From NCBI GenBank assembly GCA_948144175.1, contig CANXME010000315.1, positions 1-64,000 of the forward strand: DNA of 64,000 bases, written 5' to 3'. This stretch comes from Closterium sp. NIES-65. Lineage: Eukaryota; Streptophyta; Zygnematophyceae; Desmidiales; Closteriaceae. Shown here one piece after another: positions 36,218 through 64,000 of this stretch. Positions within the stretch are counted from its first letter, which is position 1. Every line of letters begins with the position of its first letter. The notes beneath the pieces are model-generated. The model was not told the DNA's origin. It did no database searches and saw only the letters and a list, made by a program, of their open reading frames with translations. The position numbers and the translations under genes are program-made.

Positions 36218-39200
36218 TCATAAATAATCACCTTGCACGATTTCATTTCCCTTCAGCCCAGACAAGCATCGCCAGACAGCCTTGGAGAGGGAGGCGTCAT
36301 CAAGGGGTTTGGAGAGGTAGTCATCCATGCCGACGGCAAAGCAGTGCTGGCGCGTGCCGGCAATCACATCCGCTGTGAGCGCAATGATGGCCACATGCCC
36401 CCCGCCCTGAGCCCTCTCCCTCGCTCGGATCCTCCGGGTCGCCTCCAGCCCATCCATTTCCGGCATCTGGGGGGTGTAGAGGAACGAGGGGTGGAAAAGG
36501 GGGAGTTCAACGCCAAATGGAGTGGCGGATGCTCCTACTCGCCTCCAGCCCGTCCATACCCGGCATCTGCATGGGAAGGTGGGGAAAGGGAGGTTGAGAG
36601 ATGAAGATGAAGCAATGATGATTGATTTGCTACCCTCCCATACATCTCCCACCCTCTCACACATCTCCCACCCTCCCACCATCTGCTACTCTCCCACACA
36701 TCTCCCACCCTCCCACCATCTGCTACCCTCCCAAACATCTCCCACCCTCCCACCATCTGCTACCCTCCCACACATCTCCCACCCTCCCACCATCTGCTAC
36801 CCTCCCACACATCTCCCACCCTCCCACCATCTGCTACCCTCCCACACATCTCCCACCCTCCCACCATCTGCTACCCTCCCACACATCTCTCCCTCGCCTC
36901 CTAGGCTCACCTGCAGGTCCATGAAGACAAGCTGATAGGGGTGGGGCGGAGCAAGGGCTTGAAGCGCCTTGGTGCCGCCATCCACGGCAGTGACTCGCGC
37001 GCCGTGCCTCTCCAGCAGCTTGCTGGCCACCTTGCGGTTGATGAGGTTGTCATCCACCACCATCACCCGCCGACCCACCAGCACGCTCAGCCCCTCCGCC
37101 ACCGTTGCCGGCTCCCGTGCCGCTGCTGCTGGGGCTGGTGCTTCTGCAGGGGCTGCTGCTGCTGGCACGGGCATTGCTGCTGTTGCTGCTGCTGCTGGCG
37201 CTGCTTCTGGAGCTGCTGCTGGTGTTGGAGGCGGTGGTGGTGCTGCTGCTGCCACAGCCACAGCAGTAGCACCACCTGCACGAGCAATTTGGGATGCAGA
37301 AGCAGCAGAAGAATCTGCAGCAGCAGCAGCAGCAGCAGCAGCTGGGGTAAACTGTGGTGATGCCGGAGTGATCTCAGTTGCCCTGCGTTTCCTCTTATCT
37401 TTCCTCGAATCACCTTCCTTTGAACTGTCTGTAGCAGCGTGACATGAAGACCTGTCAGGCTCGCACGCAGCAACGTTTCCACGAAACTTTCGAGGAGACA
37501 GCAGCTTCCATAAACCCCTGTCCTTGCCAAACCTCCCACTGCTCCCTCCCTCTTTTCTCTCTCCCTCCTTTCTCTCATCCTCCCTGCTCCCACACTCATG
37601 GCAATCATTTTCAACAGAGTCACAAACTCCACAATCAACCTGCAAGCTACCCAGCTTCCCAGGCTCACTGGTGTAACCTGAGAGCATTTCAAGACCTCCT
37701 CTAGCCTGGTCAGCATCAGAATCACAGCGTCTCACCGGCTCGGTAGTATCTACGTGGCGGCTGCTCACATGAGGCGAGTGTGACAACACAGACTTTTGGG
37801 ATTGCGGTAAGAAGAGGGGCAGCAGGGCAGCGGCAAGCGTGTTCCTCCGAAGCGGCTTCCGAACCACAGCATCGAACCCGAGAGAGAGGAGGTACGGCAC
37901 GGTGGTAACCGGTGAGGCCGACGCTCCTGGAGTGGCAGGTGCACCGAATCTGGACACCACATGCGCCTCGCTGCTGCTGCTGGCGGTTCGGCTGCAAGCA
38001 GGGGTGCTGTGGTTGTGGTTGCTGTTCCTGTTATCGGAACCATTGATATTGGTGTTGTCGGCGGTGCTTCCAGGGTTGCCTTTTGTACTGGTTTCCGGAG
38101 CAACAGACGGTTGAACGAGGTCTGGAGCAAGGGACACCCACCCATGTAGCAGCACCAGTGCCGGACGCTCACGATTCCTCCCCTGCCTCTGCCCTGTCTG
38201 CTGCTGCTGCTGCTCCTCCTCCTCCTTCTTCTTGGCCTCCTCTTCCTCCTCTTCCTCCTGCACCATCTGCTGCTGCCGCTGCTGCTGCTCCAGGGGAGAG
38301 AGGTGGGGGGACACGAGGGCAAGCAGCTGGTCCACATGCAGGCGGCAGCGATTCATCATCTCCTCCTCCACCACCACCGCCACCACCCGACTCCTCGGCA
38401 CCACACGCTGCGGCTGCTGCTCTTGCTGCTCGTGTTTCTGCTGTTGCTGCTGCTGCTCTTCTTGCTGCTGCTCCTGCTTTTGCTGCTCCGCCTGCATCCC
38501 CCGCTGCGGCTCCTCCTCCTCTTCCTCCTCCTCCCCTCTCTGCTGCTGCTGTTGTTGCTTCACCTGAGCCTCAGCCAAGCACTGCAGCAGCAGCGACGCT
38601 TTCGACTCGATCCTCGGCCCTTCCATGCTCACACTCACCACCTTGCCACTCGCGGTGCGCATCAAACTCGACCGTGTTGACTGCCTTGACTGCATTGAAA
38701 GTATTGACCGCATCGACTGTGTTGACTGAGTTGACTGCCACCCCTCCACCACCACCCCATCCCTTGCCGCACATCCAAAGTTGCAGGCCCCATGCAGGCT
38801 GCATCCCATCCTGCCAGGGACACATTCACCAAGGGGTGAGAGGCGCGGTGGCCCCACCGCGCTAACTGACGATGCTCTCGCATGCTTCGAAGCCGCTGAC
38901 CCCGGGCCAGTGGGGCTAGAAATGTGCGGGCTGGAAGCAGGAGTGAGGGAGACAGACGGGGCGTGGGTCGATGAGAGGGACGGGACCCTAGGAGGGTAGG
39001 ACGGAAGGGACTGGGTGACCAGAGAAGGTTGTGGAAGTCGATCAAAGGTACAGATCAAAGGGCCAGAGGGGGGGTCGAGGGACAGTGCCTTTTGAGTCGA
39101 CTCAAGAGGATCTAGGGAGAGAGAAGGGTTGAAGGGAGGGTCGAGGGAGAGGGTGGGGCTACACGCACCCTCTGCATAGGCCCTCTCTGCTTGCTTCTGA

Positions 39201-39479
39201 AACGCCTTTCTGAGGCTTGGGAGGTCGTTGTGGGAGAGGGACGGGGTGCGGGACAAGGAGGGGGAAAAGGAGGTGGATGCGTGTAGACGCTCTTTCTTTG
39301 TTGAGAGTGAGGAGGTGCGTGCTAAGGAGGAGGAGGGTGGTAGATGCTTGGAACGGCGCGCGGGGTTGGAAGAAAGGTCGGGAGAGGAGGATGGCTGGAG
39401 AAGGGGGGGTGAGGGGTAGGAGGGGAGTAAAGATGGGTGGGGACAGTGTTGTTGTTGCTGTTGTTGATGGTGGTGGGAC

Positions 39480-39511
<32 letters not shown>

Positions 39512-40668
39512 GTCTGCAAAGAATCGGCAGATGGGATTCCGAACAAGGCCAGCAGTAGGAGAGTCTTCCAAACCAGAGGCCCCTCGGAGCACAGCAGTCA
39601 GAGCAGCATCAGCAGCTGGGCCTACATCAGTCGAGGAGCAAGGAGAGGCTGAGAGAGAGCGAGGCACGCATGCCTTTTTTGCGGGGGAGGCGCCCAAAGA
39701 GCTGCTTCCAGGGGCTGCGATTGATGGGCTCACACAGGCCCCGCTTGCACGCGCAGCAGCACGCAGGGCTGTGGTGGCAGCGCTGGGCGGTGCAGAGGCG
39801 GCAGAAGCAGAGATGGAGTGTGGGAGAGACGCCAGCCTGGGCGGCATGCTGCTGCTGCTGGCTGCAGTAGGTGAAGGGCCAGCAGCAGAAGGCATTGCAG
39901 CAGCAGAAGCAGTAGGGGCAGTAGGGGCAGGAGGGACAGAAGGAGAAGGGGCCAGAGCAGATGTGGCAGTGGGAGCAGGGGGTAGAGAGGAGGAAGCAGG
40001 AGGTTGGGCGGCTAAAAGAGAAGGAATCAGACTGGGAGGGTGAGTGGCTGTGCAGTGGTGAGCAGTTGGGGGGTCAAGAGCAGCGGTGGAGGAGCGATGG
40101 CGCCAGTGGTGCGGTGCAAAGCGGAGGAGAGGCTGACTCCTGGTCTTCTTGGAGTCAGGGAGGAGGGGGATGAGCGACTGACTCCTGGTCTTCTTTTGAG
40201 GCGCCTCAAGAGGCTGGCTCCTGGTCTTAGTGGACGTGGGGAGGAGGGGGATGAGAGAGATGGACATAGAGTCTGCTGACGTCTCCGCCCTGGGGAGAGG
40301 CGGGACGAGAGAGAAAGATGGTGAGTCTCCCCTTCCCAAAGAAAACGTTTTCTTTCTCTTCGTTGCTCCTGCTGCTGTTACACTCGCTCCTCCTCCTCCT
40401 CCTCCTCCTCCTCCTCCTCCTCCTCCTCCTCCTCCTCCTCCTCCTCCTCCTCCTCCTCCTCCTCCTCCTCCTCCTCCTCCTCCTCCTCCTCCTCCTCCTC
40501 CTCCTCCTCCTCCTCCTCCTCCTCCTCCTCCTCCTCCTCCTCCTCCTCCTCCTCCTCCTCCTCCTCCTCCTCCTCCTCCTCCTCCTCCTCCTCCTCCTCC
40601 TCCTCCTCCTCCTCCTCCTCCTCCTCCTCCTCCTCCTCCTCCTCCTCCTCCTCCTCCTCCTCCTCCTC

Positions 40669-40699
<31 letters not shown>

Positions 40700-43600
40700 G
40701 GCTGCTGCTGGTGCTCCTGTTGGTGCTGCAGTCAATGCCACATCAGATTCAGGTGCAGCTGCAGCAGCTGGTGGGAGGCCGTAGTGGTGTTGGGCGAGGA
40801 GGCGGGGGAGGAGGTGGAAGGAGGGGCAGGGGAGGGTGCAGATGCCAAGGCGGCGCAGCAGAGAGAGAGTGACGGCATGCCGCACCGCCCGGTCGTCCAC
40901 ACTCACCACAAGCACGCCTTCCCATCCCTCTGCTGCCCTCCAACCACCCCCACCACTCACCACGCACACGCCCATCTCACTCCCAGCCACTGTTCCACCA
41001 GCACCACCAGCAGCAGCAGAGCAAGCAGCAGCAGCTGCACGTGGTGTGAAGGACGGCCCAGAAGCAGCAGGCGAGATGGTGCGAGGCAGCAGAGGCATAG
41101 AGGGCGCGAGAGGAGGAGGAGGAGGAAGAGGAGGGCAGGGCGCTGGGCAGGAATGGGCGGAGGAAGGAGGGAAAGGAGGAGGGCAGCAGGGCGGAGGGGT
41201 GGAGGGAGTGTCGGTAGGAGGGGTGTGGAGCGTGATATCAAAGTAGAATGTAGTGCCGACGCCTGGCTCGCTGGTGAAGGCGATGCTGCCTCCCATGAGC
41301 GACACGAGACGCTGCAGAACAGATGAGGCATGCCACACGGGAAGAGGAAGGGAAGCCCAGAGACATGAAGCGAGATAGGAGGTGCGAGAGTTGATGTACA
41401 AGGGGAAGGTGCTGCTGACGCCTGGCTCGCTGCTGAAGGCAATGCTGCCTCCCATGAGCAACACGAGACGCTGTAAGGGGGAGGGGAAAGAGGGAAGAAC
41501 AGGGTCGGACAACACAGAGAGGTGGACATAAGCTCGTTCCTTCAGGGCTAGCGTAATGGGCGTAGCAGAGGGAGAGGGATGCGTGTTGGCCTGTGCAGGC
41601 GTTGCGTGCGGGATGCGATGGGAACAGCAGAGGGATGGCTGCCAGGGAACAGCAGAGGGATGGCTGCCAGGGAACAGCAGAGGGATGGCTGTCAGGGGAT
41701 TGGGTAGAAGCGTGGGGGACTAGAGAAGAACATGTGAGTCTCAGGCAAATTTCAGGGTGCGACAGGCAAAACACAGGGCAACAGGGCAAATCTAGAGTCA
41801 AGGCCACCAGAAAATCTAGGAAGCGTGGTGCCACACGCACCTTACAGATGGAGAGGCCGATGCCCGTCCCCCCATGCAGGCGAGTGGTGCTGGCGTGCGC
41901 CTGGGAGTACGGGCGAAACATACGCCTCTGTGCCGCCATGGGGATGCCTTCTCCTGTACCTCATCCGTACCTCACCCATACCTCACTCGTACCTCACCCA
42001 TACCTTATCCGTACCTCACCCATACCTCACCCGTACCTCACCCATACACAACGGACCTTACAGATGGAGAGGCCGATGCCCGTCCCCCCATGCAGGCGGG
42101 TGGTGCTGGCGTGCGCCTGGGAGTACGGGCGAAACATGCCCCTCTGAGCCGCCATGGGGATGCCCTCTCCTGTATCCTCCACCGCCACCAGCAGCCGCAC
42201 CGCCTGCCCTCCGCACGCTGGGTGCGCCTGAGAACTCTCTGCAACACCCTGCACCGCCTGCCCTGCACACGCTGGGTGTGTTTGAGCGTTGCTGGAGCAG
42301 GTGTGATTCGCCATGCCATGCTGCTGACAGCTGTGATTGGCCGTGCCGGTGCCGGTGCCGGTCCAGGTGCCAATGCTGGTGCTGATCGTACCGGTGCCAA
42401 CGGTGCTGAGGTCTACAGTGCCGCCCATAGCCTCCCATGAGCACCACGTTTGCACTGCCGGCCGCCCGCTCAGCGTCAGTGCTGCTGCTGCTGCTGCTGC
42501 TGGTGGTACTGCTTCTTCGGGTGCTCTTGGTGCTGCCTTTCCGCTTCTGCCTTCCTCTCTTGAAGCGTGCCGGCGATGGTGATGGGAGTGGTGGTGGTGG
42601 GAGTGGTGATGGAAGGACACAGACAGCTCTTCGAGCATGCTCCTCCAGTGGCGGTCGGGATCGCTGTTGCGGCGGCGATGGTAACCATGGTGCGAATGCG
42701 AGTGGTGGTGGTGCTGCTGGTGGTGCGAGTGGTGTTGGTGGTGGTGCTGCGAGTGGTGCTGGTGCTGGCGGTGATGGAGGGAGGAAGAGGCAGAGGAGGC
42801 GAGGGAGTGGACGGTATCGTCGGGCAGAGCGAGGCGGATGACGAGGAAGATGTGCCCCGTGCTCGTGAACTTGAACGCGTTGCTGATGAGGTTCATGAGG
42901 ATCTGTGGCCGGTGGGGAGGGTGGGAAGGGAGGGGACAGGTGAGGGGTATAGCCTCAACGCATTCATGAGGACTCATTAGGCTTTGTCGGGCAGAGCGAG
43001 GCGGAAGACGAGGAAGATGTGCCCCGTGCTCGTGAACTTGAGCGCGTTGCCTATCAGGTTCATCAGGATCTGTGGTCGATTAAAAGGGCCGAGGGGTCGT
43101 AGGGAGAAAAGAGGGAGATTGTTTGCTAATTTTTCGCTCACAAAAAATGGGTGGTGGGGAGCGCGGTGGGGCACGAGGGTCAATGGAAGAGGGGGGCGCC
43201 GGTGGGCAGTGTGGGCGGGGTACAGGGGCACTGGCGATATTTTTAGTTGAACTTCAGGTTTTAAAGGTAGCAATGTTCTAATGGGTCTAGTGTAAAAGTG
43301 GGATGCATGGAAACAACGTGAGTTTAACGGCAATAAAGAAAATCTCCACCGGAAAAAAAACTAAAACAAATAAACAAACAATTGCTGAGTTTTATTTACT
43401 CACCTGCCGTATGCGCAGCGGATCCCCGACGAGAGTCTCCGGCACATCATCAGCCACGAAGGCTGCCAGCTCCACCGATCGCTTCTCCTCCGCGCTCTCC
43501 ACAAACAGTGCAAGCACGTCGTCGAGCTCGGCTCTCAGATTCAAGGGGATGCGCTCGAGGCGGAGCTTCTCGGCCTCGATCTTGGAGAGGTCGAGAATGT

Positions 43601-46600
43601 CGTTGATCAGCGCACACAGCGCCCGCCCGCTGCTGCACGCCGTCTCCGCGTAGTCCTGCTGCGTGCCGTCCAGAGGGGTCTCCATCAGCAGGTTCAGCAT
43701 GCCTGGTGGGGGGCATTGACAAAGGGGAGGGAGGGTTGGAAGGAGGAGTGTGTCCGACTCAAGAGGAGCAGGTGTGCCGCGACCAGAAGTGGAGCAGGTG
43801 GGCTGAAGGGGAGGGGAAGGTTGAGGTAGGGTGAAGGCGGCCGTGATGTGAGATGAAGGGCGCAAGCAGATTCAGCATGGCAAGGTTAACGTGTGCCGGC
43901 CGGGTGGGTGGTGGTGATGTGCAGTGCAGGCAGGAATGCAGGGTCCAAGCAAGCATGGTGGGGGCTGCTAGTATATGGTAACTGAAAGCGTACCTATCAC
44001 GCCATTCATGGGAGTACGAATCTCATGGCTCATGGTGGTGAGGAAGTCGCTCTTAGCTCGACTCGCCGCCTCTGCCGCCACCTTGGCCGTCGCGAGCTGC
44101 GCTTGTGCTGATTCCACTCGCAGCGTGTCGGTTTCAAGCTTGGCCATGAGGTGCACGGACATCCAGAGCACGAGCACTGAGATCGCCAGGATGATGAATG
44201 AAACTACCATCCACACGAACGGCGGGCTCGGCTTCGCGTTGGCTTCCGGCCTGCGAGGGGGAAGGAAGGGGGTTTGTTGATATAAAGAGTCACTTACGAT
44301 GCACTCAGGAGGCAAATTCGAGGCTATGAAGAGGTAGAATGAGAAGCACGCAAGGGGCGCTTCACGAGCACTTGAGAGACAGATTCTTAGGATTTCTAAT
44401 AGCTGGACAACCAACCTGCAGACAGAACGAAACAAAAAAGACGGGCTCGACAGAGCGAGACGGAGCGGATCAGACAAAGGCAAACAGACAGAAAGAAGCA
44501 ACGCTGAGCCCCAGGCAGCCCACTCACTCGCAAACAAGCACAAAGTTCCGTGACGGGTCGCCGAACCACATGGGGTACTGAACGCGCCCTTGGTACTGCA
44601 CCACTCGTCTCTTATGCGCCACCGCCGCCCACACTCCTGCCTGCTTCCCCGTCATCCCCTCCGTCCCTTCCGGCCCAAACAGCACAGCTGGGCTGCTCTC
44701 ATTGGTCACGTCTATGAGGTATGTGCGAAGAGGGAGGGCTTTAAGCTGGTCGAAGTTGGGGGCGAGGCGGAGTGTGTGGAAGGAGTAAGCTGCGATGAAA
44801 AAGCCGTGCGGTTTGGTGAGTGCGTCGAGCGAGTCGGGCTCAAAGCTCTGCGGTGCAGATGGGTCGATTCCGGTGTGGGGGTGAGGGGGGGATCCAGTGG
44901 GTGCATGTGCGTCTGGGGAGTTGGTTGGGATGGAACCGCTGCTGCCATTGCTGGTGCTACCACTACCCTCCGTGCCACTGCCGCTGCTGCTGCCACTGCC
45001 GCTGCTGCCATTGTTGCCGCTCCTGCCACCGCTCCTGCTGCTACCAGTGCTATTAGCATTGGTGGAGGCAGCACCAGGCACGTGAACGAACACGTGGCCG
45101 TGGTCATGAGTGTCGTACACGGGGAAGGCCTGCGCCACCATGTGGAAGGGCGATGCTGGGGATGCCATGGGGGCGGACATGGCGCCGCTGCGCCCCGTGT
45201 CTGCCGCCCGGATCATGGCTGCTAGCGTGGGGTCTGATGGAAGGGAAGGGTGGAATGGGGGAGGGGTGGGAAGTGAGTAGGAGTCATGGGATTGGGGAAG
45301 TGAGTAGGAGTCAGCGCCGCAAGCTAGGGCTCACCGGAGAGCAGGTCAGCGCCGGCAGCAGTGCGGTGTGGGGGGAGGTGGTTTTGAGAAGAGATCTTTT
45401 GAGTCGAATCGCAAGCTCAGGCTCACCGGAGAGCAGGTCAGCGCCGGCAGCAGTGCGGTTGCGGGGAAGGCGGCGCATGCTGCTCCCCTCGTTGCTGCTG
45501 GTGCCCAGCAGCAGCGGCACGTACAGCGGCAGGCCAGGCGGGCGGCAGGAGAACTCCGCGCTCACTGCGATGAGGCAGCCCTGCAGTCGCTGCTCCACGT
45601 GGCTGCGCAGGGCTGAGCTGTTGACTCGGAGAGCATAACCCACAACTGGAGAGGGGGGGAAGGGGTGGGTGCGATGGGTGCGATGAGTGCAATGAGGCAG
45701 CCCTGCAGTTGCCGCTCCACGTGGCTGCGCAGGGCCGTGCTGTTCACTCGAAAGGACAGGGAGGGGGAGGGATGGGTGCAGTGAATGTGATGAGGCAGGC
45801 CGGGCGGGCGGCAGGAGAACTCCGCGTTCACTGCGATGAGGCAGCCCTGCAGGCGCTGCTCTTTGCTACGTGATGGCGGAGAGCCGTGCTGTTGTGTTGA
45901 CTCGAGGAGCATAGCCCACAACTGCAGGGGGGGTTGGGGAAGTTTGAAGGACAGGGGTTGACGGGGTAGGGAGGGGATGGAGAGGAAAGCGGAAGGAAGC
46001 AGAATGGGGAAGGAAGGGCAGGAGAGGAAATGAGGGAAGGCACGAGGCAGCAGTAGAAAGAGCGAGTGGTGGGAGGATGGGTGGTTGGGGTGGTTGGGGT
46101 GGGCGGATGAGCGGATGGGTGGATGAGTGAATGGGGGGACGAGGGAGGCAACTCACATGCTGCCACGGGGCGGGCGTGCAGTGCGGAGGAGCTGAACTTG
46201 AGGAACTTGGACGGGCGGAAGAAGCTCTCGCGCCTGATGGGGGGAAGGTGAGTGGGGGAGAGTGGGGGGGTGGATGCGGGGGGGGGGGGGGATATTGGGG
46301 GAGAGGGGGGGACAAGGGAGTGACAGGGAGATTGTGGGCGTATCTTCTGACATGGTAAAAGTGCGACACCTTATGACGTAGAGGGCATACCCACCCACTC
46401 GTATGGTAAACGTACCCGTCGATGTAGTAGGCGTGGACGAACTCGGCGAGCGCGCGCGTGTTGGCCTGCGTGGAGTTGAAGTGCGACTCGATGAACGCTG
46501 CCCACTCGCCGCACTGCCCCTCGCGCTCCGCCTGCTGCTCGCTCGACGCTTGCGTCCACACGATCGTGAAGATCATCGCCAGCAAGCCCACGCTCATCAC

Positions 46601-48153
46601 CGCCCAGATCCAACACACGCGCTGGGATGGCGGCGGGGAGGGAGCGGGAACAGGGGGAGGGGGAAGAGGGACACTGAGTGTTTCTCTGCCACTGCGCGCG
46701 CCCGCACGCGCGCGAAGACGACTGCTAGCCCGTCGAGACTGATCACTGCCCAGATTCAACACATGCGCTGGGGGATGGGGAAGTGGAAGTGGCGGGGATG
46801 GGGTGGTAAGGGGGAAGAGAAGCGATGCGCGCATCAGCAAAAGTCGCCAGCAGCGGACCCGCGCTAGTCAGCGGCGAAATTCGACAGAAGCAAGGAGAGA
46901 CGGAGGAGAGGAGATGAGACGCCGTGAAACACGCAGCACTCGTACCACAAAGATCATTCGTCGCGCGCGCGCATTCGTTGAATGCGTGCAATCGTCGCAT
47001 GCGTGCATTCGTCGCATGCGTGCATTCGTTGCATGCGTGCATTCGTCGCATGCGTGCATTCGTCGCATGCGTGCATCCGTCGCATGCGTGCATCCGTCGC
47101 ATGCGTGCATTCGTCGCATGCGTGCATTCGTCGCATGCGTGCATCCGTCGCATGCGTGCATCCGTCGCATGCGTGCATCCGTCCCATGCGTGCATTCGTC
47201 GCATGCGTGCATCCGTCGCATGCGTGCATTCGTCGAACGCGCGCGTCCGGCGCCCTGACGGCCAAGACCCAGCACACGCGGCGCTGTGAGACAGGAAGAG
47301 CACCCAGTGCATGCGTGGTTAACGCCGCTGGCGCGACCAGGCGGAAAATAGTAATGAAAAGGCAAACAACAAACAAAACACACGCATTTGAACGTACCAG
47401 ACGCCATGCGTGCGTAAGAGCGCGCAGCGGCCAGGAGAGAAACGACTCGACGGCAGACACCCAGGACTCTCTCGTGCTCCCACTTAACTCCTCCGCCCCC
47501 CCCTTGTCGTCCTCCTCTTCATCCTCCCATTCCTCGTCTCCTTCCCAGTGTCCATCACATTTCCGTAGCGCCGTTCTCTCGGTGTTCCTCATCCCCTGGT
47601 CGCCTTTGCGACAACTTAGTCCACCGATTTCCCATCCATCGTCGCTAGAGCTGGACCCATCGCTACTATCGCCATCACCTTCGTCGTAAGCATGCGACTC
47701 CTTCCCGCCGCGTCGCCTTGCCGTTTTCCGCCATAAACGCGAAATGCCTACCCAGCTTTTCTTCCTCTTACGACCAACTCCGTCAGAACCCACTAAATTG
47801 TCCACTTCGGAATCATCCCGGTCGTTTCTCTCTAAAAGCTTCCTGTCCAGCCACGAACTGGGAGGTTCATGGTTACTCTCGCCACCATCTCGCCGCGCGG
47901 GGTCAGCAGCAGCGAAATCGTAACCGTCAGAAGCTCCCAGGCTTGCGACAGCCGCACAACTGCTGCTGCCCTCGCTGCTGCCGGCGAAACCCTTCCGGTC
48001 GTCAACATTACCGGCGGCAGCCGCAGCTTGCCTTCGCGTCATGTATTCCTGGGGACGCGTGGAGCGAACGGAGTTGCTTGCGCTGAGATGCTCGGACACG
48101 TCGGGCGAAGATTCCGCGGAAGGTGATGCGAACACACTCATTTCCGCCATCAT
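36218..48153 (-). CDS. CHASE-type hybrid histidine kinase (cytokinin receptor-like)
   Basis: Sensor kinase with the AHK/CRE1 layout. Model of 10 exons: 48153-47398, 46621-46416, 46233-46157, 45645-45427, 45233-44528, 44250-43994, 43702-43404, 42902-42057, 41311-36911, 36466-36218. All phases agree and give about 2,671 aa. Seen: a 252-residue acidic N-terminal extension; TM1 ([19 protein letters not shown]); a CHASE-like extracellular region (exons 2-5, ending [13 protein letters not shown]) with a Gly/Ser insert; TM2 ([20 protein letters not shown]); HisKA with the phospho-His motif [11 protein letters not shown] box ([10 protein letters not shown]); a His-rich insert; G boxes VEDTGEGIP and [10 protein letters not shown]; a pseudo-receiver; and a C-terminal receiver with VVDDN, acceptor Asp in FMDLQMPEMDG and Lys in LSKPL. 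Exon 9 (1,467 codons) carries a huge low-complexity insert that splits the pseudo-receiver. It would autophosphorylate at a membrane and relay to HPt proteins. Cytokinin as ligand is inference. The start was chosen as the first Met of the long frame. Confidence 0.85.
36536..36572 (-). repeat. Decayed copy of the start of kinase exon 10
   Basis: It has an AG acceptor and reads MPGMDGLEA before diverging; the real exon 10 start ([12 protein letters not shown]) lies about 100 bp further on. It sits in the preceding intron. Confidence 0.75.
36640..36890 (-). repeat. 37-bp minisatellite in kinase intron 9
   Basis: Six to seven tandem copies of a 37-bp unit that includes CCCTCCCACCATCTGCTACC (plus strand). 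Intronic and not coding. Confidence 0.85.
39089..39108. repeat. Family palindrome within kinase coding sequence
   Basis: TTTTGAGTCGACTCAAG, translated as LESTQK on the minus strand. It is flanked by SLDPP-encoding repeats. Confidence 0.7.
40194..40210. repeat. Family palindrome within kinase coding sequence
   Basis: TTTTGAGGCGCCTCAAG, translated LEAPQK. It is flanked by CTGRCTCCTGGTCTT repeats (about 40,133, 40,179 and 40,213) that encode KTRSQ. Confidence 0.75.
40386..40672 (-). repeat. (CTC/GAG)n microsatellite encoding poly-Gly
   Basis: About 95 uninterrupted triplets, read as GGA (Gly) in the kinase frame and adjoining about nine GCA/GCT-type Ala codons. The opposite strand reads as poly-Pro or poly-Leu, which I do not take as coding. 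Confidence 0.9.
41390..41470 (-). repeat. Copy of the start of kinase exon 9
   Basis: It reads [20 protein letters not shown] with a weak acceptor (TTACAG). The presumed real exon starts at 41,311 with [20 protein letters not shown]. Confidence 0.8.
41829..41956 (-). repeat. Copy of the G-box end of kinase exon 8
   Basis: It reads [20 protein letters not shown], ends [10 protein letters not shown] and a GTGCGT donor, and has its own upstream AG. Nearly identical to the end of exon 8 (about 42,057-42,170). Confidence 0.85.
42984..43074 (-). repeat. Copy of the N-box start of kinase exon 8
   Basis: It reads [20 protein letters not shown] and then hits a stop soon after LALPDKA, with no donor nearby. 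The functional version is at 42,902. Its AG acceptor is intact, so it could trap splicing. Confidence 0.85.
43862..43890 (-). repeat. Decayed copy of the start of kinase exon 7
   Basis: AMLNLLAPF resembles the [10 protein letters not shown] start of exon 7 at 43,702. Confidence 0.55.
45319..45459 (-). repeat. Direct repeat - palindrome - direct repeat at the kinase exon 4 donor
   Basis: Two 49-bp copies of the end of exon 4 with its GTGAGC donor (45,319-45,367 and 45,411-45,459, two mismatches) flank 43 bp that contain a decayed family palindrome (TTTTGAGTCGAATC, 45,397-45,410). Confidence 0.85.
45690..45928 (-). repeat. Two decayed upstream copies of kinase exon 4
   Basis: 45,690-45,757 reads [20 protein letters not shown]; 45,806-45,928 reads [12 protein letters not shown] and, in another frame, [20 protein letters not shown]. 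The real exon starts at 45,645 and reads [20 protein letters not shown]. Confidence 0.85.
46731..46770 (-). repeat. Decayed copy of the start of kinase exon 2
   Basis: Acceptor CAG, then codons matching [10 protein letters not shown] but with an early stop. Confidence 0.75.
46975..47235 (-). repeat. 17-bp minisatellite in kinase intron 1
   Basis: About 15 copies of GCATGCGTGCATTCGTC with C/T variants. The long open frames across it on both strands are repeat artefacts. Confidence 0.9.
47253..47290 (-). repeat. Outer copy of the start of kinase exon 2
   Basis: Acceptor CTCACAG, then [12 protein letters not shown]. It is in frame with exon 1, so it could be spliced, but it runs into the minisatellite. 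Confidence 0.75.
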
Positions 48154-50473: not shown

Positions 50474-51346
<873 letters not shown>

Positions 51347-52185: not shown

Positions 52186-52198
52186 GTTGCTTCGCAAC
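52186..52198. repeat. Second hairpin followed by CTAA and a T run
   Basis: GTTGCTTCGCAAC, then CCTAAGACGAT and a run of T about 20 bases on, in the same order as at 49,374. Confidence 0.55.
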
Positions 52199-53022: not shown

Positions 53023-53156
53023 GTCACAGGGGGCGATCGATCATCCGAAGGGTCGTCTTTGTGGGGTTAGAAAAGGCTCTGAAAGCTGCGATTGCAATTA
53101 GCGTGATTACACTGCGGTGGCGGATCGATATTGGACGATCAATCGCCCCCTGTGAC
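53023..53156. repeat. 134-bp inverted repeat
   Basis: 24-bp arms (53,023-53,046 and 53,133-53,156), starting GTCACAGGGGGCGAT and its reverse complement, with two mismatches and an 86-bp centre. It could be a small MITE or a hairpin RNA. No target duplication is seen. Confidence 0.6.
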
Positions 53157-53229
53157 GCGTCCCCAAGGCACCTCACCGAGAGGGGCAAATAAGCACTTTG
53201 CTTTTTCATGGCAACAGCCAATAAGCAGG

Positions 53230-53590
53230 CTCACTCGCCCCAGTAAGGGTGTTTGCCATCGTCGTCAGAGGCATACGCCATAGTCAGAGGCATACGCCAT
53301 AGTCAGAGGCATACGCCATAGTCAGAGGCATACGCCATAGTCAGAGGCATACGCCATAGTCAGAGGCATACGCCATAGTCAGAGGCATACGCCATAGTCA
53401 GAGGCATACGCCATAGTCAGAGGCATACGCAATAGTCAGAGGCATACGCCATAGTCAGAGGCATACGCCATAGTCAGAGGCATACGCCATAGTCAGAGGC
53501 ATACGCCATAGTCAGAGGCATACGCCAAAGTCAGAGGCATACGCCAGCTGCGGGTGCTTGGGGTTCCACTCGAGTCATTTCAGTCAGGGC
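53230..53590 (-). repeat. THO3 exon 10 copy containing a 19-bp minisatellite
   Basis: A third copy of the last THO3 exon: WNPKH-type codons at about 53,550-53,580 and DDDGKHPYWGE near 53,235. In between, about 15 tandem copies of the 19-bp unit CATACGCCATAGTCAGAGG (53,265-53,545) are derived from the LAYASD codons of the exon. Confidence 0.85.
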
Positions 53591-53640
53591 CAGGCCCCCT
53601 AAGGCACAAAAAGGCAATGCTTTCATCGCAACCAGGTGAC

Positions 53641-53680
53641 TTTTGAGTCGACTCAAAGAGGTGACTTTTGAGTCGACTCA
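53641..53680. repeat. Two tandem family palindromes
   Basis: TTTTGAGTCGACTCAAA at 53,641-53,657 and TTTTGAGTCGACTCA at 53,666-53,680. They lie between two copies of THO3 exon 10 (53,230-53,590 and 53,706-53,795). Confidence 0.9.
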
Positions 53681-53705
53681 ATAACAACCAAGAGGCTCAC
53701 TCACC

Positions 53706-53795
53706 TGGGGATGAGTGCTTGCCATCGTCGTCACATGCATATGCGAGGAGCAGGTGCTTGGGGTTCCACTCAGATCATTCCAGTCCAAGCAGCAC
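53706..53795 (-). repeat. Second copy of THO3 exon 10
   Basis: Matches WNPKHLLLAYA.DDDGKHSSPG with the same GTGAGT after the end. It lacks the upstream half of the exon. Confidence 0.85.
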
Positions 53796-53849
53796 CCCTG
53801 AGGCATAAAACAGAAGTGCTCTTGGGGCAACAAAGTACTAGCAGCAGGC

Positions 53850-56800
53850 TCACTCACCCGGGGATGAGTGCTTGCCATCGTCGTCAGAGGCATATGCGAG
53901 GAGCAGGTGCTTGGGATTCCACTCCACACTGTTCATCGCCGCCCAGGATGGGATCTGATGCACCGACCGCCCCGTCTCCACCTCCGCCTGTTGTTGGAAG
54001 GGGATCCGGAGGAGAGGGTTGGGCGGCAGAGCATAGGACGTGGGGAATGCGGGGGAAAGAGAGGGATGGAGGGGATGTGTGAGGTCTGGGGGCTTACATC
54101 GCTGAGATGAATCTTGTGCTGAGATCTGGGGTGGCTTGCATGAGATAGGGAAGAAGGATGGGGGAATTTTGCGCTGAGTTTAGAACAGTTTGGGAGGCGG
54201 GAGAGGGTGGTGAAGGAGGGAAGACAGGAGACAGGGATGGAGGGAGGCAATGGCGTGGTAGCTGCATGCACGGTGTGTTCTATGCACGGTGTGTTCTATG
54301 CACGGTGTGTTCTATGCACGGTGTGTTCTATGCACGGTGTGTTCTATGCACGGTGTTTTCTATGCACGGTGTGTTCTATGCATGGTGTGTTCTATGCATG
54401 GTGTGTTCTATGCATGGTGTGTTCTATGCATGGTGTGTTCTATGCATGGTGTGTTCTATGCATGGTGTGTTCTATGCACGGTGTGTTCTATGCATGGTGT
54501 GTTTTATGCACGGTGTGTTCTATGCACGGTGTGCATGCATGATACACCGGCACAATGAGTGAGCTCGCAAGATACAGCACTATACATGCATGCTGCATGG
54601 CCCACAGTGCTGCACGGCCCACAGTGCTGCACGGCCCACAGTGCTGCACGGCCCACAGTGCTGCACGGCTCACAACACGGCACGCCTTACAATGTCAACA
54701 AAGAGGTCTTCACTAGCAGACGCGAGATACCGCCCATCGTGGCTGAAGCTGACAGTGCGTACGGGCCATCTGAGGAAGAGTGGTTGAGAAGGGAAGGGAA
54801 GGGAAGGGAGATGCATTGACCGAAGGGGGAAATAAGGGGATTGGAGGTTGGATGGGATGGGACGCATGAGCCGCTCGAGTTGACAGCAAAGCCTCCAACT
54901 ACGCCTTATAACAAAGCCTTATAACAAACTACGAGAATGGAGGGTAGGAAGGGACCATTTTTGAGACGCCTTAAAAACGGAAAGGGGGAACGGACAAAGC
55001 TGACTTTTGAGTCGACTCAAAGGGATGAAGGAGGGACGACTTTTCAAAAAGGGACGAATTAATGAGCCACTGGAGTTGACAACAAGGAGAGGCGGAGCGG
55101 CATTGGAACATTGTGGGCACTAGCCAGCCATGGTAGGGGGCACAGGGGGCAGGCAGATATGAACGAAGCATGCAGCCTGACAGGTGCTGCTCACTCAATG
55201 GTGTGAGGGTGCAGACACACAATGTGTGCTGTATGTTGCACACAACAGGGCACTTGGTACGTACTCGTGCATGCACTTATCAACTCTCTCGAGGCGTGTG
55301 AAGGTGCGCTCACACAGCATGTGCCGCATGTCCCACAGGGCGAGACACTTGATAGTCACTCGGGACATGCATACTGTTCAACTCACTCTAATCGTGTGAA
55401 GGTGCGCACACACAGCATGTGCTGCATGTCCCACAGGCTCACCAGTGCGTCTGCACTGCCCGCTGCAAAGTACCTGTGGGTGATGGTGATGGTGGGGGGA
55501 GATGGCGTGGCGTGGAGAAGGAGACAGGGGAGGAGATATGAGGACTTGTGGTGGTGCCGATGGTCCCATCGGCTCGGCTCACCAGCAGTCTGCACTACCT
55601 GCTGCAAAGTACCTGCAAGCTGATGGTGATGTGAAAGGAGAAAACGGGAAAGAAAGAGAACGGGAAAGAAAGAGAACAGGAAAGAAAGGAGACGGAGAAA
55701 TTGAAGTGTGCGGGGAAGGGATGAGAAGAAGCGGAAGGGAATAAGGAAGAAGAAAAGAACTTCAATGGAGCAAGTGGAAAACATACCGAAAAGCATTTTT
55801 AGATAAGCAGACGGGAAACTATATCGCAGAAGAGAGGATAACATGTGCAATGCAACTACATGCTTACATCCTCCTCACGCCCTCCCATACACACCCTCAC
55901 TCTACCACTTCATTTTCTGATCGACTGACAAATCGCACTCCCACTCGCACTTCCACACACATTCCCCTCATCACACACTCCCTCCCTCCCACCGGCCACT
56001 CTACCACCTCCCTTATGCAATGCCTCAAACACACGCACCTGCCAAGGGGGTCAATGGCCAGCGAATACACCCCTGCTGTGTGTGCGTGCAGGGTGTCTAG
56101 TGTCTGCAGGGAGGGGTAACCCAAAACTTCCACTGCACCTGCAAATTGAGGTGTGGAGAGAATTTGAGGTGTGGTGGAGAATGGGGTGTGGTTGAGTTGA
56201 GGTGTGATGGGAAGTCGATGTGCAAAAGGAAGGTGAGTGAGTCAATGTTAGTTTTGAGGCGCCTCAAAACTGAAGGAAGGTGAGCGAGTCAACGCCAGGG
56301 GCCGGGTTGATGCCACCGAACGGACAGTTGCTCAGTCCCACGGCTCATCAGCGCACCACAGCCACACCGTTTTGCACCGCACTCCACACCTGTGCACCGG
56401 AGCTCACCTGTGCCGGTTGTGACAAGGAAGATGGACCCTGTTCGGTCCCACGCGAACTCGTTCAGCTGCCCAGGGTACAGGTGGGTGGGAGAGAGACAGT
56501 GAGAGGCAGGGAAACAGCATGCAGACAGGTGAGAAGCGAGGCTGAACTGGACGGTGGGCGGAAGCGGAGAGGTAAGAAGAGGATACAGGAGACAGGGGGA
56601 ATAGACGGAGGTATTGGTGTGAATGTGAGAGCCGTAAAACGAACTCAGCTGCAATAAGTGGGGGCCAGGCAGAGATGCGGGTGAGGCAGAGAAGGGGCAA
56701 TGGTTAAGAATGGCTGACCTCGTAGGTGAACTTGCGCTTGTGGATAGGCTTCAGCTTCCTCACATCCAGAATAGTCAACTCGTCCGCCTGCAGCATGCAT

Positions 56801-59800
56801 GCAACCCCAGGCACCATGCATGCATGCATGCAACCCCAGGCACCATGCATGCATGCATGCAACACCAGGCACCATGCATGCATGCATGAAACGAAGTAGG
56901 TGAGGTGAGCGGTCTATCCATGAAACGAAGTAGGTGAGGTGAGCGGTCTATCCATGAAACGAAGTAGGTGAGGTGAGCGGTCTATCCATGAAACGAAGTA
57001 GGTGAGGTGAGCGGTCTATCCATGAAACGAAGTAGGTGAGGTGAGCGGTTTATCCATGAAACGAAGTAGGTGAGGTGAGCGGTCTATCCATGAAACGAAG
57101 TAGGTGAGGTGAGCGGTCTATCCATGAAACGAAGTAGGTGAGGTGAGCGGTCTATCCATGAAACGAAGTAGGTGAGGTGAGCGGTCTATCCATGAAACGA
57201 AGTAGGTGAGGTGAGCGGTCTATCCATGAAACGAAGTAGGTGAGGTGAGCGGTCTATCCATGAAACGAAGTAGGTGAGGTGAGCGGTCTATCCATGAAAC
57301 GAAGTAGGTGAGGTGAGCGGTCTATCCATGAAACGAAGTAGGTGAGGTGAGCGGTCTATCCATGAAACGAAGTAGGTGAGGTGAGCGGTCTATCCATGAA
57401 ACGAAGTAGGTGAGGTGAGCGGTCTATCCATGAAACGAAGTAGGTGAGGTGAGCGGTCTATCCATGAAACGAAGTAGGTGAGGTGAGCGGTCTATCCATG
57501 AAACGAAGTAGGTGAGGTGAGCGGTCTATCCATGAAACGAAGTAGGTGAGGTGAGCGGTCTATCCATGAAACGAAGTAGGTGAGGTGAGCGGTCTATCCA
57601 TGAAACGAAGTAGGTGAGGTGAGCGGTCTATCCATGAAACGAAGTAGGTGAGGTGAGCGGTCTATCCATGAAACGTCAGGCTTTGACACGACCGACTGAC
57701 ATCGAAGCAACTAGAATGTCAGTAGCTTGGCTGTAGTGTCAAGCCATTAGTGACCTAACTCACAGCGCAGCCCATTCACTCACATCACAAGACAGCTCAC
57801 TAGCATAGTACGGAAGGTTGACGTTACAATACCACCCACAGCACAGCACGTTAGAACACACGTTACAGTACAGCACTTTCACGTTACAGTACAGCACTTT
57901 CACGTTACAGTACAGCACTTTCACGTCACAGTACAGCACTTTCACGTTACAGTACAGCAATTTCACGTTACAGTACAGCAGACTCACGCTGTTGCCCACA
58001 GCGATGTGCGTGCCATCAGGCTTGTACGTGACGTTGATGTTCTCGCCCTTTAGAGTCACACTCTGCTGACACCTGGCCGCTGACATGGCAAGGAGAGGAA
58101 CACACAACGGACAGAAGACAGCAGCACTTGTGCAAAATGAACAAATAAGAATACTCATGAAATGTTTGCGTGTGTGCATGTGTGCATTGCATGAACGTGC
58201 ACGTGCACGAATAAGGATAACCGAAGATCTGCACAACATCTTAAGATGTTTTGAAGATTTGCAAAACATCATCAGATTGCTGCGTGTAACCTTCACTCCC
58301 ATCTCGCGTGTCGCCAATGTGAACAAATTTGTCTTGAGACAGTCTGGACACGAGTAGGTCCAGATGGAGGGGACGTTTGAGAATTCTTAAAAGTGATTTT
58401 CATATAACACGTCTGGACACAAGCAGGTCCAGATGGTCTTGAAGAACTTTTGAAGCGCCTCAAACTCCGCCCATACCATGCGCCCTTCACTCCCATCACA
58501 TCACACTGCACCCGCACGCATCCGAAAGCGTACCCCCTGCACTCACATCCTATCCCACACCCCCTGCACTCACATCCCATCCCACACCCCCTGCACTCAC
58601 ATCGTGTGTCCCAGATGCGCACGGACTTGTCTTGAGGCGCGGACGCAAGGAGGTCCGTCCGGGTGGGTGGGGGAGGAGACTCTGAGGCGCCTCAACATGC
58701 GTCCCATACCATGCACCCTGCACGCTTATCCCATCCCACACCCCCTGCACTCACATCGTGTGTCCCAGATGCGCACGGACTTGTCTTGAGGCGCGGACGC
58801 AAGGAGGTCCGTCCGGGTGGGTGGGGGAGGAGACTCTGAGGCGCCTCAACATGCGTCCCATACCATGCACCCTGCACGCTTATCCCATCCCACACCCCCT
58901 GCACTCACATCGTGTGTCCCAGATGCGCACGGACTTGTCTTGAGAAGCAGACGCAAGGAGGTCAGGGTGGAGGGGGTCCCAGCACAGGTTGTCCACACTC
59001 TCGCTGTGGCCCCTCAACTCCACCTCCCGATGCTTGCTCTGCACCATGGCACATAGTATGACATGACATTCCATGACATGTCATCACATGAATGACATGA
59101 CATGATATGTCAGAGTGGTGAAAGGGGCCTCTTTCCCAGCACAAGTTGTCACCACTCTCGCTGTGACCCCTCAACTCCACCTCCCGCTGCTTGCTCTGCA
59201 GCACCACGGGCAGCACGTGAACGGCATGACACGACAACGATGGGAGGAATGAGGCGGATGGAGGCTCAGAGTCGGTCGGATCGGAAACGTTACACTGGGA
59301 TGGGGTGCTGGACTGGGATGGGGTGTTGGACTGACTGGAATGAAACTTAACAAATGGAATGGGGCGTTGCCAGGCTGACTCACGGAGTTTGATTGGCCGC
59401 TCGGATCCACTTGCCACACGCGAATGGTTTGGTCCACCGAACCTGACCCGAGCTTCTCGCCGAGGCAGTTCCACACCACCGAATGCACCTGGGTCAGAGA
59501 AAGAGAAAAACGTCATAATGAAACACAGAAAATGATGCATTCAACGTTCTTTGGAACGGAATCCGTGTTACCTTGACCTAGCATCCTTTCCCTTCCCCTA
59601 CCTTCAGTTCTGTATGACCTCATTCTGTATGACCTCATTCTGTATGACCTCATTCTGTATGACCTCATTCTGTATGACCTCATTCTGTATGACCTCATTC
59701 TGTATGACCTCATTCTGTATGACCTCATTCTGCATGACCTCATTCTGTATGACCTCATTCTGTATGACCTCATTCTGTATGACCTCATTCTGTATGACCT

Positions 59801-60616
59801 CATTCTGTATGACCTCATTCTGTATGACCTCATTCTGTATGACCTCATTCTGTATGACCTCATTCTGTATGACCTCATTCTGTATGACCTCATTCTGTAT
59901 GACCTCATTCTGTATGACCTCATTCTGTATGACCTCATTCTGTATGACCTCATTCTGTATGACCTCATTCTGTATGACCTCATTCTGTATGACCTCATTC
60001 TGTATGACCTCATTCTGTATGACCTCATTCTGTATGACCTCATTCTGTATGACCTCATTCTGTATGACCTCATTCTGTATGACCTCATTCTGTCTGTCAA
60101 CTCCATACCTCCACAAGACCTCATGCCCCCAACACACTCCTACTCCCCCCCTCTCCCCCGTGCCTCCCACGCGCCTCCAACGCTCCCGCATGCCTCCCAC
60201 CTGCTTTCTACTCCCTCATTGGTCCACGTGTCTCGTACCTTCTTCTTGTGCCCAACAAACTCTCGGCTGTACAGGTTCCTAAAAGGGTCCTTTCCCGCTC
60301 TTAGTTGCGACGGCAGCGGCGCGGGTGCCGGCGGCTGCTGTGACTGCCCTTGCGCCTGGCCCTGCCCCTGCGCCTGTCCTTGCGACTGCTGTTGCTGCAG
60401 CTGCTGCTGTTGCTGTAGTTGCGCTTGCGCCTGCTGCTGTTGCGCCTGCTGCTGCGGGTGCGGAAGCGGAGGCTGCGCGGGGGGTCCGCCGGGGTATTGC
60501 GCGAATCCGGTTGCGCCGGGGTGCGGCGGAGTGGGGTAGCGGTGGGGGATGTGGCCGTGTGTGAAGGGTGAGGGGTGGTGCTGCTGGTAGTGCATCGGCC
60601 CTCCCATTCCGTACAT
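53850..60616 (-). CDS. THO3: THO complex subunit 3 (TEX1), WD40 protein
   Basis: Member of the THO/TREX complex, which couples transcription to mRNA export in the nucleus. Exons: 60616-60239, 59488-59384, 59038-58909, 58079-57988, 56787-56719, 56465-56408, 56138-56039, 55473-55387, 54769-54691, 53987 to a stop at 53850. Phases agree; about 411 aa. After a Gln/Pro-rich N-terminal extension of about 100 residues the product follows plant TEX1 closely: EFVGHKKKVHSVVWNCLGEK, GSVDQTIRVW, ASASQDKSVRIWDTRS, KGENINVTYKPDGTHIAVGN, ELTILDVRK, LDTLHAHTAGVYSLAIDP, AAGSADALVSLWDMQHMLC, SASEDLFVDI, AAMNSVEWNPKH. These are WD40 blades of one propeller. The last exon ends at GKHSSPGE, short of the VFRIFGF-like end of homologues. 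A GTGAGT there may be a donor to an unseen exon, so the 3' end is uncertain. The neighbouring genes lie on the same strand. Confidence 0.9.
54268..54530 (-). repeat. 16-bp minisatellite in THO3 intron 9
   Basis: About 16-17 copies of GCACGGTGTGTTCTAT with C/T variants. Confidence 0.9.
54597..54668 (-). repeat. 17-bp minisatellite in THO3 intron 9
   Basis: About four copies of CCCACAGTGCTGCACGG just after the exon 9 donor. Confidence 0.85.
54867..55085. repeat. Direct repeat with two palindromes between, THO3 intron 8
   Basis: A roughly 24-bp sequence ATGAGCCRCTSGAGTTGACA occurs at about 54,867-54,890 and 55,062-55,085. Between the copies lie TTTTGAGACGCCTTAAAA (54,959-54,976) and TTTTGAGTCGACTCAAA (55,005-55,021). 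Confidence 0.8.
55192..55352 (-). repeat. Two decayed downstream copies of THO3 exon 8
   Basis: 55,290-55,352 reads LWDMRHMLCERTFTRLE; 55,192-55,248 reads NIQHTLCVCTLTPL. The real exon end is at 55,387 (LWDMQHMLCVRTFTRL). Confidence 0.85.
55545..55608 (-). repeat. Decayed upstream copy of THO3 exon 8
   Basis: It has a TTGCAG acceptor and reads YFAAGSAD before a stop. Confidence 0.8.
56228..56294. repeat. Direct repeat - palindrome - direct repeat, THO3 intron 6
   Basis: GGAAGGTGAGYGAGTCAAYG at 56,228-56,247 and 56,275-56,294 (two differences) flanks the perfect 20-bp palindrome GTTTTGAGGCGCCTCAAAAC at 56,251-56,270. This is the cleanest example of the pattern. Confidence 0.95.
56789..57676 (-). 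repeat. Minisatellites in THO3 intron 4
   Basis: Near exon 5, two to three copies of a 36-bp unit rich in GCATGCATGCA. Then about 23 near-perfect copies of a 34-bp unit beginning CCATGAAACGAAGTAGGTGA (56,888-57,676). Confidence 0.95.
57862..57980 (-). repeat. 21-bp minisatellite at the THO3 exon 4 donor
   Basis: Five to six copies of TACAGCACTTTCACGTTACAG, starting within a few bases of the GTGAGT donor at 57,987. Confidence 0.85.
58292..58908 (-). repeat. 154-bp tandem repeat carrying THO3 exon 3 fragments
   Basis: The exon 3 end with its GTGAGT donor recurs exactly 154 bp apart at 58,600 and 58,754, the functional copy following at 58,908. Each unit also contains the palindrome core TGAGGCGCCTCA (58,683 and 58,837). 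Farther down lie a related palindrome TTTTGAAGCGCCTCAAA (58,448-58,464) and a more decayed exon copy (58,292-58,370). Confidence 0.9.
59134..59195 (-). repeat. Decayed copy of the start of THO3 exon 3
   Basis: Acceptor CTGCAG, then SKQREVELRGHSES.DNLCW. The real exon starts at 59,038. Confidence 0.85.
59609..60095 (-). repeat. 15-bp minisatellite in THO3 intron 1
   Basis: About 32 copies of TGTATGACCTCATTC. The unit is a multiple of three, so it opens long false frames on both strands. Confidence 0.95.
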
Positions 60617-61082
60617 CGCGGCGCGCTGAGTAGTAACCGCGGAGCTCTCGAGGCGTCGAAAAAACAGCTGACTGACTAAGTAAAAGCGGACAATTACTAC
60701 GATCGTCGCACGTACGGACGAATGAGCAGCAGCAGCAGCAGCTGCGGGAAGTTTGATTAAGTCCGCGAGGCAGAACAGGGCGATTGCTGGATTTTGAAGC
60801 GAGTCGCGGTTATGCGATTGTCGGAAGAAACTGGACGCATCAAGCAGGAGAGACTAGTGTGCAGGAGCACAGCTACGGCGCCTTGATCGGAAACGTAATG
60901 GGGGCGTGACTTTTAGGGAATAAAATCCACGTTACGAGAAGCAAGAATATAGTGACGAGACGACTCGTGGCACTGAAGAGCTACACTTCGTGAATGAATT
61001 ACGTTCATGACCTTACATACAGCATTTCCTAGTTCCTCATCCAGAATAATGTTCGGATTACTCATTTAATTTCTACAACTGT
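60617..61082. other. Intergenic: THO3 promoter side and phosphate acetyltransferase 3' flank
   Basis: 466 bp between the two same-strand genes. It should contain the THO3 promoter and 5' UTR and the phosphate acetyltransferase 3' UTR. I see no distinct motif. Confidence 0.5.

Positions 61083-64000
<2,918 letters not shown>

What the first reader, a model, noticed from the sequence alone, without database searches (positions are those of the whole stretch)
39089..63608. A family of short palindromes, each sitting between direct repeats of local host sequence
About a dozen sites fit TTTTGAGNCGNCTCAAAA (middle TCGA, GCGC or ACGT): 39,090; 40,194; 45,397 (decayed); 53,641; 53,666; 54,959; 55,005; 56,252; 58,448; 58,683; 58,837; 61,305; 62,043; 63,517 with 63,543. 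In each case I checked, unique local DNA is present on both sides as a direct repeat: 20 bp at 56,228/56,275; 25 bp at 62,006/62,068; 36 bp at 63,481/63,573; 49 bp at 45,319/45,411; 66 bp at 61,186/61,335; about 90 bp around 53.6 kb; 154-bp tandem units at 58.6-58.9 kb. Two lie in coding sequence between short coding repeats. The NN positions stay complementary (T..A, G..C, A..T), as expected if symmetry is kept or restored. Two readings: a tiny palindromic insert that makes long, variable target duplications, or a hairpin that triggers template switching and tandem duplication. I know of no described element with this form.
Basis: seen in the sequence. Interest (0 to 1): 0.92.

Follow-up and report, generated by a model that had tools for sequence, protein, structure and literature searches.

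The report
Tiny palindromic insertions duplicating their targets
The nuclear genome of a Closterium-like green alga carries tens of thousands of tiny mirror-symmetric DNA inserts, most intact ones lying between two copies of a stretch of local DNA, and I found no described mobile element of this form.

Summary
The window is from a Closterium-like alga (874-Mb assembly). TTTTGAGNCGNCTCAAAA occurs at 24,964 places, reversed control 0. In 264 kb, 38 of 55 independent palindromes have an abutting direct repeat, against 154 of 1500 random positions; for intact symmetric cores it is 27 of 31, against 7 of 58 for the poorest matches. A second sample gave 17 of 20. Repeats run from 16 bp to the 150-bp limit of the test. 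Empty sites were seen between strains for two insertions (proteins) and in one paralogue.

The centre is fixed and the outer ends vary independently; lone half-sites are at chance level. This is the opposite of a terminal-inverted-repeat transposon.

Best reading: micro-insertions at staggered breaks. The palindrome forms when two copies of one short half-unit join through a self-complementary tip, and gap filling duplicates the target. Insertion with target duplication is shown; the tailing step is inferred. No enzyme, template or parent locus was found, and ten literature searches showed no equivalent.

The parts
39090..39107 (.). Palindrome, centre TCGA, in coding sequence of a hybrid histidine kinase (reads LESTQK on the minus strand)
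   Evidence: the window has 12 extra residues here that NIES-53, NIES-54 and Naga37s-1 lack
40194..40211 (.). Palindrome, centre GCGC, in coding sequence of the same kinase (reads LEAPQK), between copies of KTRSQ
   Evidence: present in the three other strains too
40131..40255 (.). Direct repeat 40131-40174 / 40212-40255 around the 40194 palindrome
45382..45414 (.). Decayed composite insert with two TTTTGAG half-sites
45318..45459 (.). Direct repeat 45318-45367 / 45410-45459
53634..53683 (.). Two TCGA palindromes in a 25-bp tandem unit
54959..54976 (.). Palindrome, centre ACGC; no clear abutting repeat
55005..55022 (.). Palindrome, centre TCGA; no clear abutting repeat
56250..56271 (.). Perfect 22-bp palindrome, centre GCGC
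56226..56292 (.). Direct repeat 56226-56245 / 56273-56292
58375..58392 (.).
58448..58465 (.). Decayed palindrome, centre GCGC; no abutting repeat
58562..58963 (.). 154-bp tandem units with GCGC palindromes at 58680 and 58834, overlapping a THOC3-like WD40 exon
61303..61324 (.). Palindrome, centre ACGT
61175..61408 (.). Direct repeat 61175-61259 / 61324-61408; the first copy overlaps a phosphate acetyltransferase exon, the second is a non-exonic copy of it
62043..62060 (.). Palindrome, centre TCAA
62005..62097 (.). Direct repeat 62005-62035 / 62067-62097
63517..63558 (.). Composite 42-bp insert TTTTGAGA...TCTCAAAA
63466..63609 (.). Direct repeat 63466-63517 / 63558-63609, abutting the composite insert on both sides

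Best explanation
These are insertions of a very small palindromic unit into nuclear DNA at staggered breaks. Two opposite-strand nicks some 16 to 150 bp apart open the target. Both 3' ends receive the same short tail, a half-unit such as CGAGGTGACTTTTGAGTCGA, begun at a variable outer point and finished at one fixed inner end. The inner ends are self-complementary tetranucleotides (TCGA, GCGC, ACGT, AATT), so the tails pair tip to tip; gap filling gives TTTTGAG-NNNN-CTCAAAA and duplicates the DNA between the nicks (D-P-D). The half-unit is probably copied from a short RNA that begins at the palindrome centre, as in twin-primed reverse transcription. Shown: the family and its copy number, the abutting target duplications, empty sites at three loci, fixed centre with variable outer ends, lack of lone half-sites. 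Inferred: tail joining, the RNA template, the enzyme.
For: 24,964 exact places, reversed control 0. Abutting duplications 38/55 against 154/1500, 27/31 for intact symmetric cores, 17/20 in a second sample of which L171 and L177 are near-identical copies. Some duplications are 98-100% identical, e.g. 60 bp at L127:9299. Empty sites: 12 aa at 39,090 absent from three other strains; LEPTQ with a repeated 11-residue stretch present in those three and absent here; a neighbouring paralogous exon runs through the L127:9299 site without the insert. 177 of 199 half-sites lie in palindromes (at least 9 of 14 arm matches), the other 22 against 19.3 expected. Left and right tail lengths uncorrelated, r=0.07, 24 clean loci of 60. 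Arms agree within a locus more than between loci of one centre class at positions 1, 2 and 4 (0.84, 0.60, 0.51 against 0.65, 0.36, 0.38), not at position 3 (0.53 against 0.52). CCGG centre only 4 copies. Head-to-tail half-unit runs: 19 matches on 12 contigs, one run ending in an ordinary palindrome (L199).
Against: No template RNA, enzyme or parent locus found. Of 76 half-units not followed by the usual base I read 20: by eye 13 are two-armed palindromes with point changes or small indels, 4 are runs or fused to another palindrome, 3 (L183, L186, L195) have no recognisable second arm; none looks like a parent, 56 were not read. Head-to-tail runs may be slippage. FETSQK in NIES-53/54 has no fresh duplication of its own. 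Five of six answered joined-flank searches found only filled copies. 17 of 55 palindromes show no repeat at the threshold, and the fall with core decay is uneven in small classes (14-of-14 asymmetric 2/5; 13 symmetric 6/14; 13 asymmetric 3/5; 11 symmetric 4/6). Of 38 local direct repeats in 36-64 kb only 10 have a palindrome (11 or more of 14) in the spacer.
Confidence: 0.5

Rival explanations
1. A ready-made palindromic DNA, duplex or snap-back hairpin, is captured as filler at staggered breaks; its ends are trimmed before joining and fill-in duplicates the target.
For: A fixed centre, independently varying outer ends and lack of half-sites fit equally well. Fill-in at breaks with protruding ends is a known source of small tandem duplications (PMC8355091, passages).
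Against: Needs a large supply of one short DNA with few discrete centres; does not directly give head-to-tail half-unit runs; no donor locus found.
Confidence: 0.3
2. A palindrome that is already present stalls replication as a hairpin, and template switching duplicates the neighbouring DNA.
For: Arrays of palindrome plus D exist.
Against: Empty relatives lack both palindrome and second copy; D-P-D with one P is the usual form; perfect palindromes of 20 bp or more without this core were not seen in 264 kb, so the model does not explain the shared sequence.
Confidence: 0.08
3. Non-autonomous DNA transposon (MITE) whose interior is lost, leaving two fused terminal inverted repeats.
For: Palindromic, many copies, insertion polymorphism.
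Against: The centre is conserved and the ends vary; lone TTTTGAG ends are at chance level, so no longer element with such ends shows in the sample; duplications vary in length.
Confidence: 0.07
4. Single-primed retrotransposition of a palindromic RNA with 5' truncation, as for a very short SINE.
For: Variable-length target duplications and one variable end fit.
Against: Truncation past the centre should leave half-sites in excess; 22 seen against 19.3 expected. Both ends vary, not one.
Confidence: 0.05

Closest known systems
Mobile palindromic GC clusters of yeast mitochondria, GC42 (PMC4478555; abstract, opening text and section 17 read); double-hairpin elements of other mitochondria seen only in a search listing
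   Same: Very short palindromic units in many copies, insertion polymorphism, putative target duplication, RNA-mediated spread suggested
   Different: Organelle genome; the target nucleotides quoted for GC42 are AG; here the genome is nuclear and duplications run to 150 bp. A conserved centre with variable outer ends was not mentioned in what I read
Rickettsia palindromic elements (described in passages of PMC6649704; listings)
   Same: Palindromic units inserted in frame in protein-coding genes
   Different: Bacterial; target duplications not mentioned in the passages seen; longer units (recalled)
Twin priming in LINE integration (recalled; papers only listed)
   Same: Two cDNAs in opposite orientation between target duplications
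   Different: LINE RNA is kilobases long and gives asymmetric inversions; no LINE sequence here
Small tandem duplications from repair of breaks with protruding ends (PMC8355091, passages)
   Same: Duplication of the DNA between two nicks
   Different: No constant palindromic insert between the copies in the passages read
MITEs and introners (recalled)
   Same: Many short insertions, some in or near introns
   Different: Conserved ends and short target duplications of near-fixed length (recalled); not so here

Membership tests
TIR DNA transposon or MITE | Conserved terminal inverted repeats, variable interior | tested here: not met
   Centre fixed, outer ends variable; half-sites at chance level
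TIR DNA transposon or MITE | Target duplication of fixed short length | tested here: not met
   16 bp up to the 150-bp test limit
TIR DNA transposon or MITE | Autonomous relative with transposase | not tested
   No search for transposase genes was made
Non-LTR retrotransposon or SINE | Target duplication of variable length | tested here: met
Non-LTR retrotransposon or SINE | One constant 3' end, variable 5' truncation | tested here: not met
   Both outer ends vary independently; no excess of half-sites
Non-LTR retrotransposon or SINE | RNA intermediate | not testable with these tools
   No RNA data; Rfam at gathering threshold gave 0 matches in 36-64 kb
Staggered-break tandem duplication with filler | Direct duplication of the DNA between the nicks | tested here: met
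Staggered-break tandem duplication with filler | Filler of arbitrary or locally templated sequence | tested here: not met
   The same core recurs at 24,964 exact places
Mitochondrial GC cluster or double-hairpin element | Short mobile palindrome in an organelle genome | tested here: not met
   The host DNA is nuclear: intron-bearing genes and copia elements in the window, 874 Mb

The most novel reading that the evidence does not exclude
A retroelement reduced to a half-unit of roughly 11-30 nt with no coding capacity: genomic palindromes are transcribed as hairpins, released halves serve as template for a telomerase-like or LINE-type enzyme that tails both 3' ends of staggered nicks, the tails join by their self-complementary tips, and each event seeds a duplication that can become a minisatellite, an in-frame peptide insertion or an exon copy inside an intron.
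Probability: 0.25. Interest if true: 0.97.

Novelty: categorically new. Interest (0 to 1): 0.9.

Why it matters
If right, this is mobile DNA that fits neither transposon class as usually drawn: no conserved ends, no genes, a fixed centre, about 30,000 places with intact arms in one streptophyte nucleus, and insertions that differ between strains. It would be a direct source of target duplications, of some minisatellite arrays (10 of 187 distinct arrays in 264 kb carry the core, 6 of 101 with 2.6 or more copies), of in-frame peptide insertions and of exon copies in introns. It also makes a mechanism testable: what joins a constant palindrome into staggered breaks in this lineage.

Tried and rejected
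Symmetry repair. That palindromes drift and are made symmetric again was weakened by the near absence of centre CCGG (4 copies).

Strand asymmetry. In the window the right arm looked damaged more often than the left; the genome sample shows outer ends that vary independently on both sides, so I dropped it.

Parent element. 76 half-units not followed by the usual base, 20 of them read: no parent. Nick motif: base frequencies at 24 clean loci showed no strong motif. Rfam: 0 matches at gathering threshold. Viral contigs: 11 stretches, one place each. Both read as chance.

Retrotransposons. The 120 best-listed Closterium copia proteins (162,962 aa; 8000 were scored) gave one PESPQQ and one LSRLR, both judged chance. 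0 of 88 palindromes lie in 26,252 bp of copia-like coding in 264 kb, but 20,298 bp of that is in this window and the sample was chosen for palindromes, so avoidance and youth of the elements cannot be told apart. Among 17 Closterium kinase proteins scanned, 12 motif matches come from four insertions in one gene plus one judged chance (VESAQE in P0005); 103 other proteins gave one match.

Nulls. Searches were inflated by tandem arrays. One search masks arrays of 2.6 or more copies and random positions within 250 bp of a palindrome; 33 of 88 cores were dropped as lying in arrays or within 60 bp of another. Five thresholds were printed there; I quote 15. The 20 sample stretches held listed cores, so they do not measure density.

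Literature. Ten searches, open-licence papers only. Four papers opened: PMC10407611 (passages; 'palindrom' 0 times in the main text), PMC6649704 (passages), PMC4478555 (abstract, opening text, section 17), PMC8355091 (passages).

Full report
What was checked. At 12 or more of 14 arm matches the window has 12 sites, with 0.025 expected in 28 kb of Markov-1 sequence. The quoted direct repeats are present. In the window 7 of 13 loci sit in the spacer of a direct repeat (spacer at most 70 bp), null mean 0.26, maximum 3 in 5000 draws. It is not universal: 54,959, 55,005 and 58,448 have no clear abutting repeat.

Where it is. The window holds copia retrotransposons, a hybrid histidine kinase, a THOC3-like WD40 gene (PF25174) and a phosphate acetyltransferase gene (PF01515). 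The kinase's best hits and all 120 listed copia hits are Closterium. The assembly has 874,075,685 bases in 2400 contigs; the window is C315:1-64000. The strain is not known to me.

Abundance. TTTTGAGNCGNCTCAAAA: 24,964 places, reversed control 0, iid expectation 0.12. TTTTGAGNNNNCTCAAAA: 30,327 places, control 4, expectation 1.6. The 30-bp GGTGACTTTTGAGTCGACTCAAAAGTCACC: 613 places, control 0. In 264 kb (the window plus 200 kb taken around listed cores) 36 of 36 perfect palindromes of 20 bp or more outside tandem arrays carry the core.

Flanking repeats. Of 88 cores with at least 13 of 14 arm matches, 55 remain after dropping those in tandem arrays or within 60 bp of another. Of these, 38 have an abutting direct repeat at alignment score 15 or more, against 154 of 1500 random positions; Mann-Whitney p = 5e-22; repeat length 21-150 bp (150 is the test limit), median 50. 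Exact shared words of 14 or more: 33/54 against 158/1500. By core integrity: 27/31 for intact symmetric cores, 2/5 intact asymmetric, 6/14 and 3/5 at 13 matches, 6/15 at 12, 6/17 at 11, and 7/58 for asymmetric 10-of-14 matches, which is the random level. Two further samples: 17 of 20 loci of the 30-bp form, of which L171 and L177 are near-identical copies of one locus, and C315:64-104 kb, where 6 of 8 cores (12 or more matches) reach the threshold, two of them in one array.

Empty sites. In the kinase the window carries 12 extra residues (LESTQK plus a copy of the neighbouring motif) that NIES-53, NIES-54 and Naga37s-1 lack. NIES-53 and NIES-54 read DPATVGEGQGM-LEPTQ-EPATVGERLSV, and Naga37s-1 a close variant, where the window has one copy and no insert. 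LEAPQK is in all four. FETSQK is in NIES-53/54 only and has no duplication of its own. In the window's own genome, joined flanks of L127:9299 (60-bp duplication, 100% identical) align to two neighbouring paralogous exons without interruption; one alignment runs 24 bases past the left junction, the other only 3. Three near-identical copies of the locus itself are filled. The other five joined-flank searches that were answered found only filled copies.

Anatomy. A clean locus reads D - tail - TTTTGAG NNNN CTCAAAA - tail' - D. Example L133:9827: a 44-bp repeat, GAGTGAC, the core with AATT, GTCACTC, the 44-bp repeat again. Tails are 0-18 nt, median 3.5, left and right lengths uncorrelated (r = 0.07; 24 of 60 loci met the criteria). 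Arms agree within a locus more than between loci of the same centre at positions 1, 2 and 4, not at 3. The longest half-units seen by eye are about CCATGGTAACGAGGTGACTTTTGAGTCGA for centre TCGA and something like CACGTGTTTGAAGAAGTGTTTTGAGACGT for ACGT; 30 of 104 arms examined at exact TCGA cores end in GAGGTGAC, several of them in one array. Centres among 78 sample cores: TCGA 35, GCGC 19, ACGT 12, AATT 5, others 7; CCGG has 4 copies in the genome. Single half-sites are not in clear excess: 22 outside palindromes against 19.3 expected.

Mechanism. Target duplication plus empty sites show insertion at a staggered break. The obligatory centre, the independent outer ends and the self-complementary tetranucleotide suggest that the palindrome is made of two copies of one half-unit joined at the tip. 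My preferred route is templated tailing of both 3' ends, tip pairing and gap filling (inferred). Head-to-tail half-unit runs (19 matches on 12 contigs), one of them ending in a palindrome (L199), fit repeated rounds of addition, though slippage is possible. Capture of a ready-made palindromic DNA is the main rival and is not excluded.

Consequences. Ten of 187 distinct tandem arrays of period 18 or more in 264 kb carry the core. In phosphate acetyltransferase and THOC3 duplicated segments include exon copies outside the exon itself. I infer that insertions at exon edges survive when D brings a splice site along, or when the added length keeps the frame, as in the kinase.

Limits. No enzyme, template or parent locus was found. 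No DNA of another strain was available, so the between-strain cases rest on protein alignments. Of 38 local direct repeats in 36-64 kb, 10 have a palindrome (11 or more of 14) in the spacer; whether others are decayed D-P-D events is unknown.

Noticed in passing
window 36000-64000: Many local direct repeats without the palindrome in the spacer, e.g. 41835/42051, 42819/42986, 62378/62503, 63152/63284, several copying exon pieces.
   Followed up: partly
window 40387-40673: A (CTC)95.7 run encodes about 96 glycines in the histidine kinase; the NIES-54 relative has about five glycines there and Naga37s-1 a gap.
   Followed up: no
window 3000-36000: Copia-like polyproteins with glycine-rich tracts; no palindrome of this family with 11 or more of 14 arm matches there.
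   Followed up: partly
G000:C10 (2,026,582 bp): All cores listed for this contig lie between 350,727 and 472,620 (the list is ordered and goes on to C13), while C6 of 154 kb has 27 listed; the distribution is very uneven.
   Followed up: no
G000:C2249: Near-identical second copy of parts of the window (98-100% over the two stretches searched), both carrying the same inserts.
   Followed up: no
G000:C21:1653907-1655371: Array of the 30-bp palindrome, 15 units listed, mostly at 67-bp spacing.
   Followed up: no
window 50474-51248: 775-bp GA-rich dinucleotide tract.
   Followed up: no
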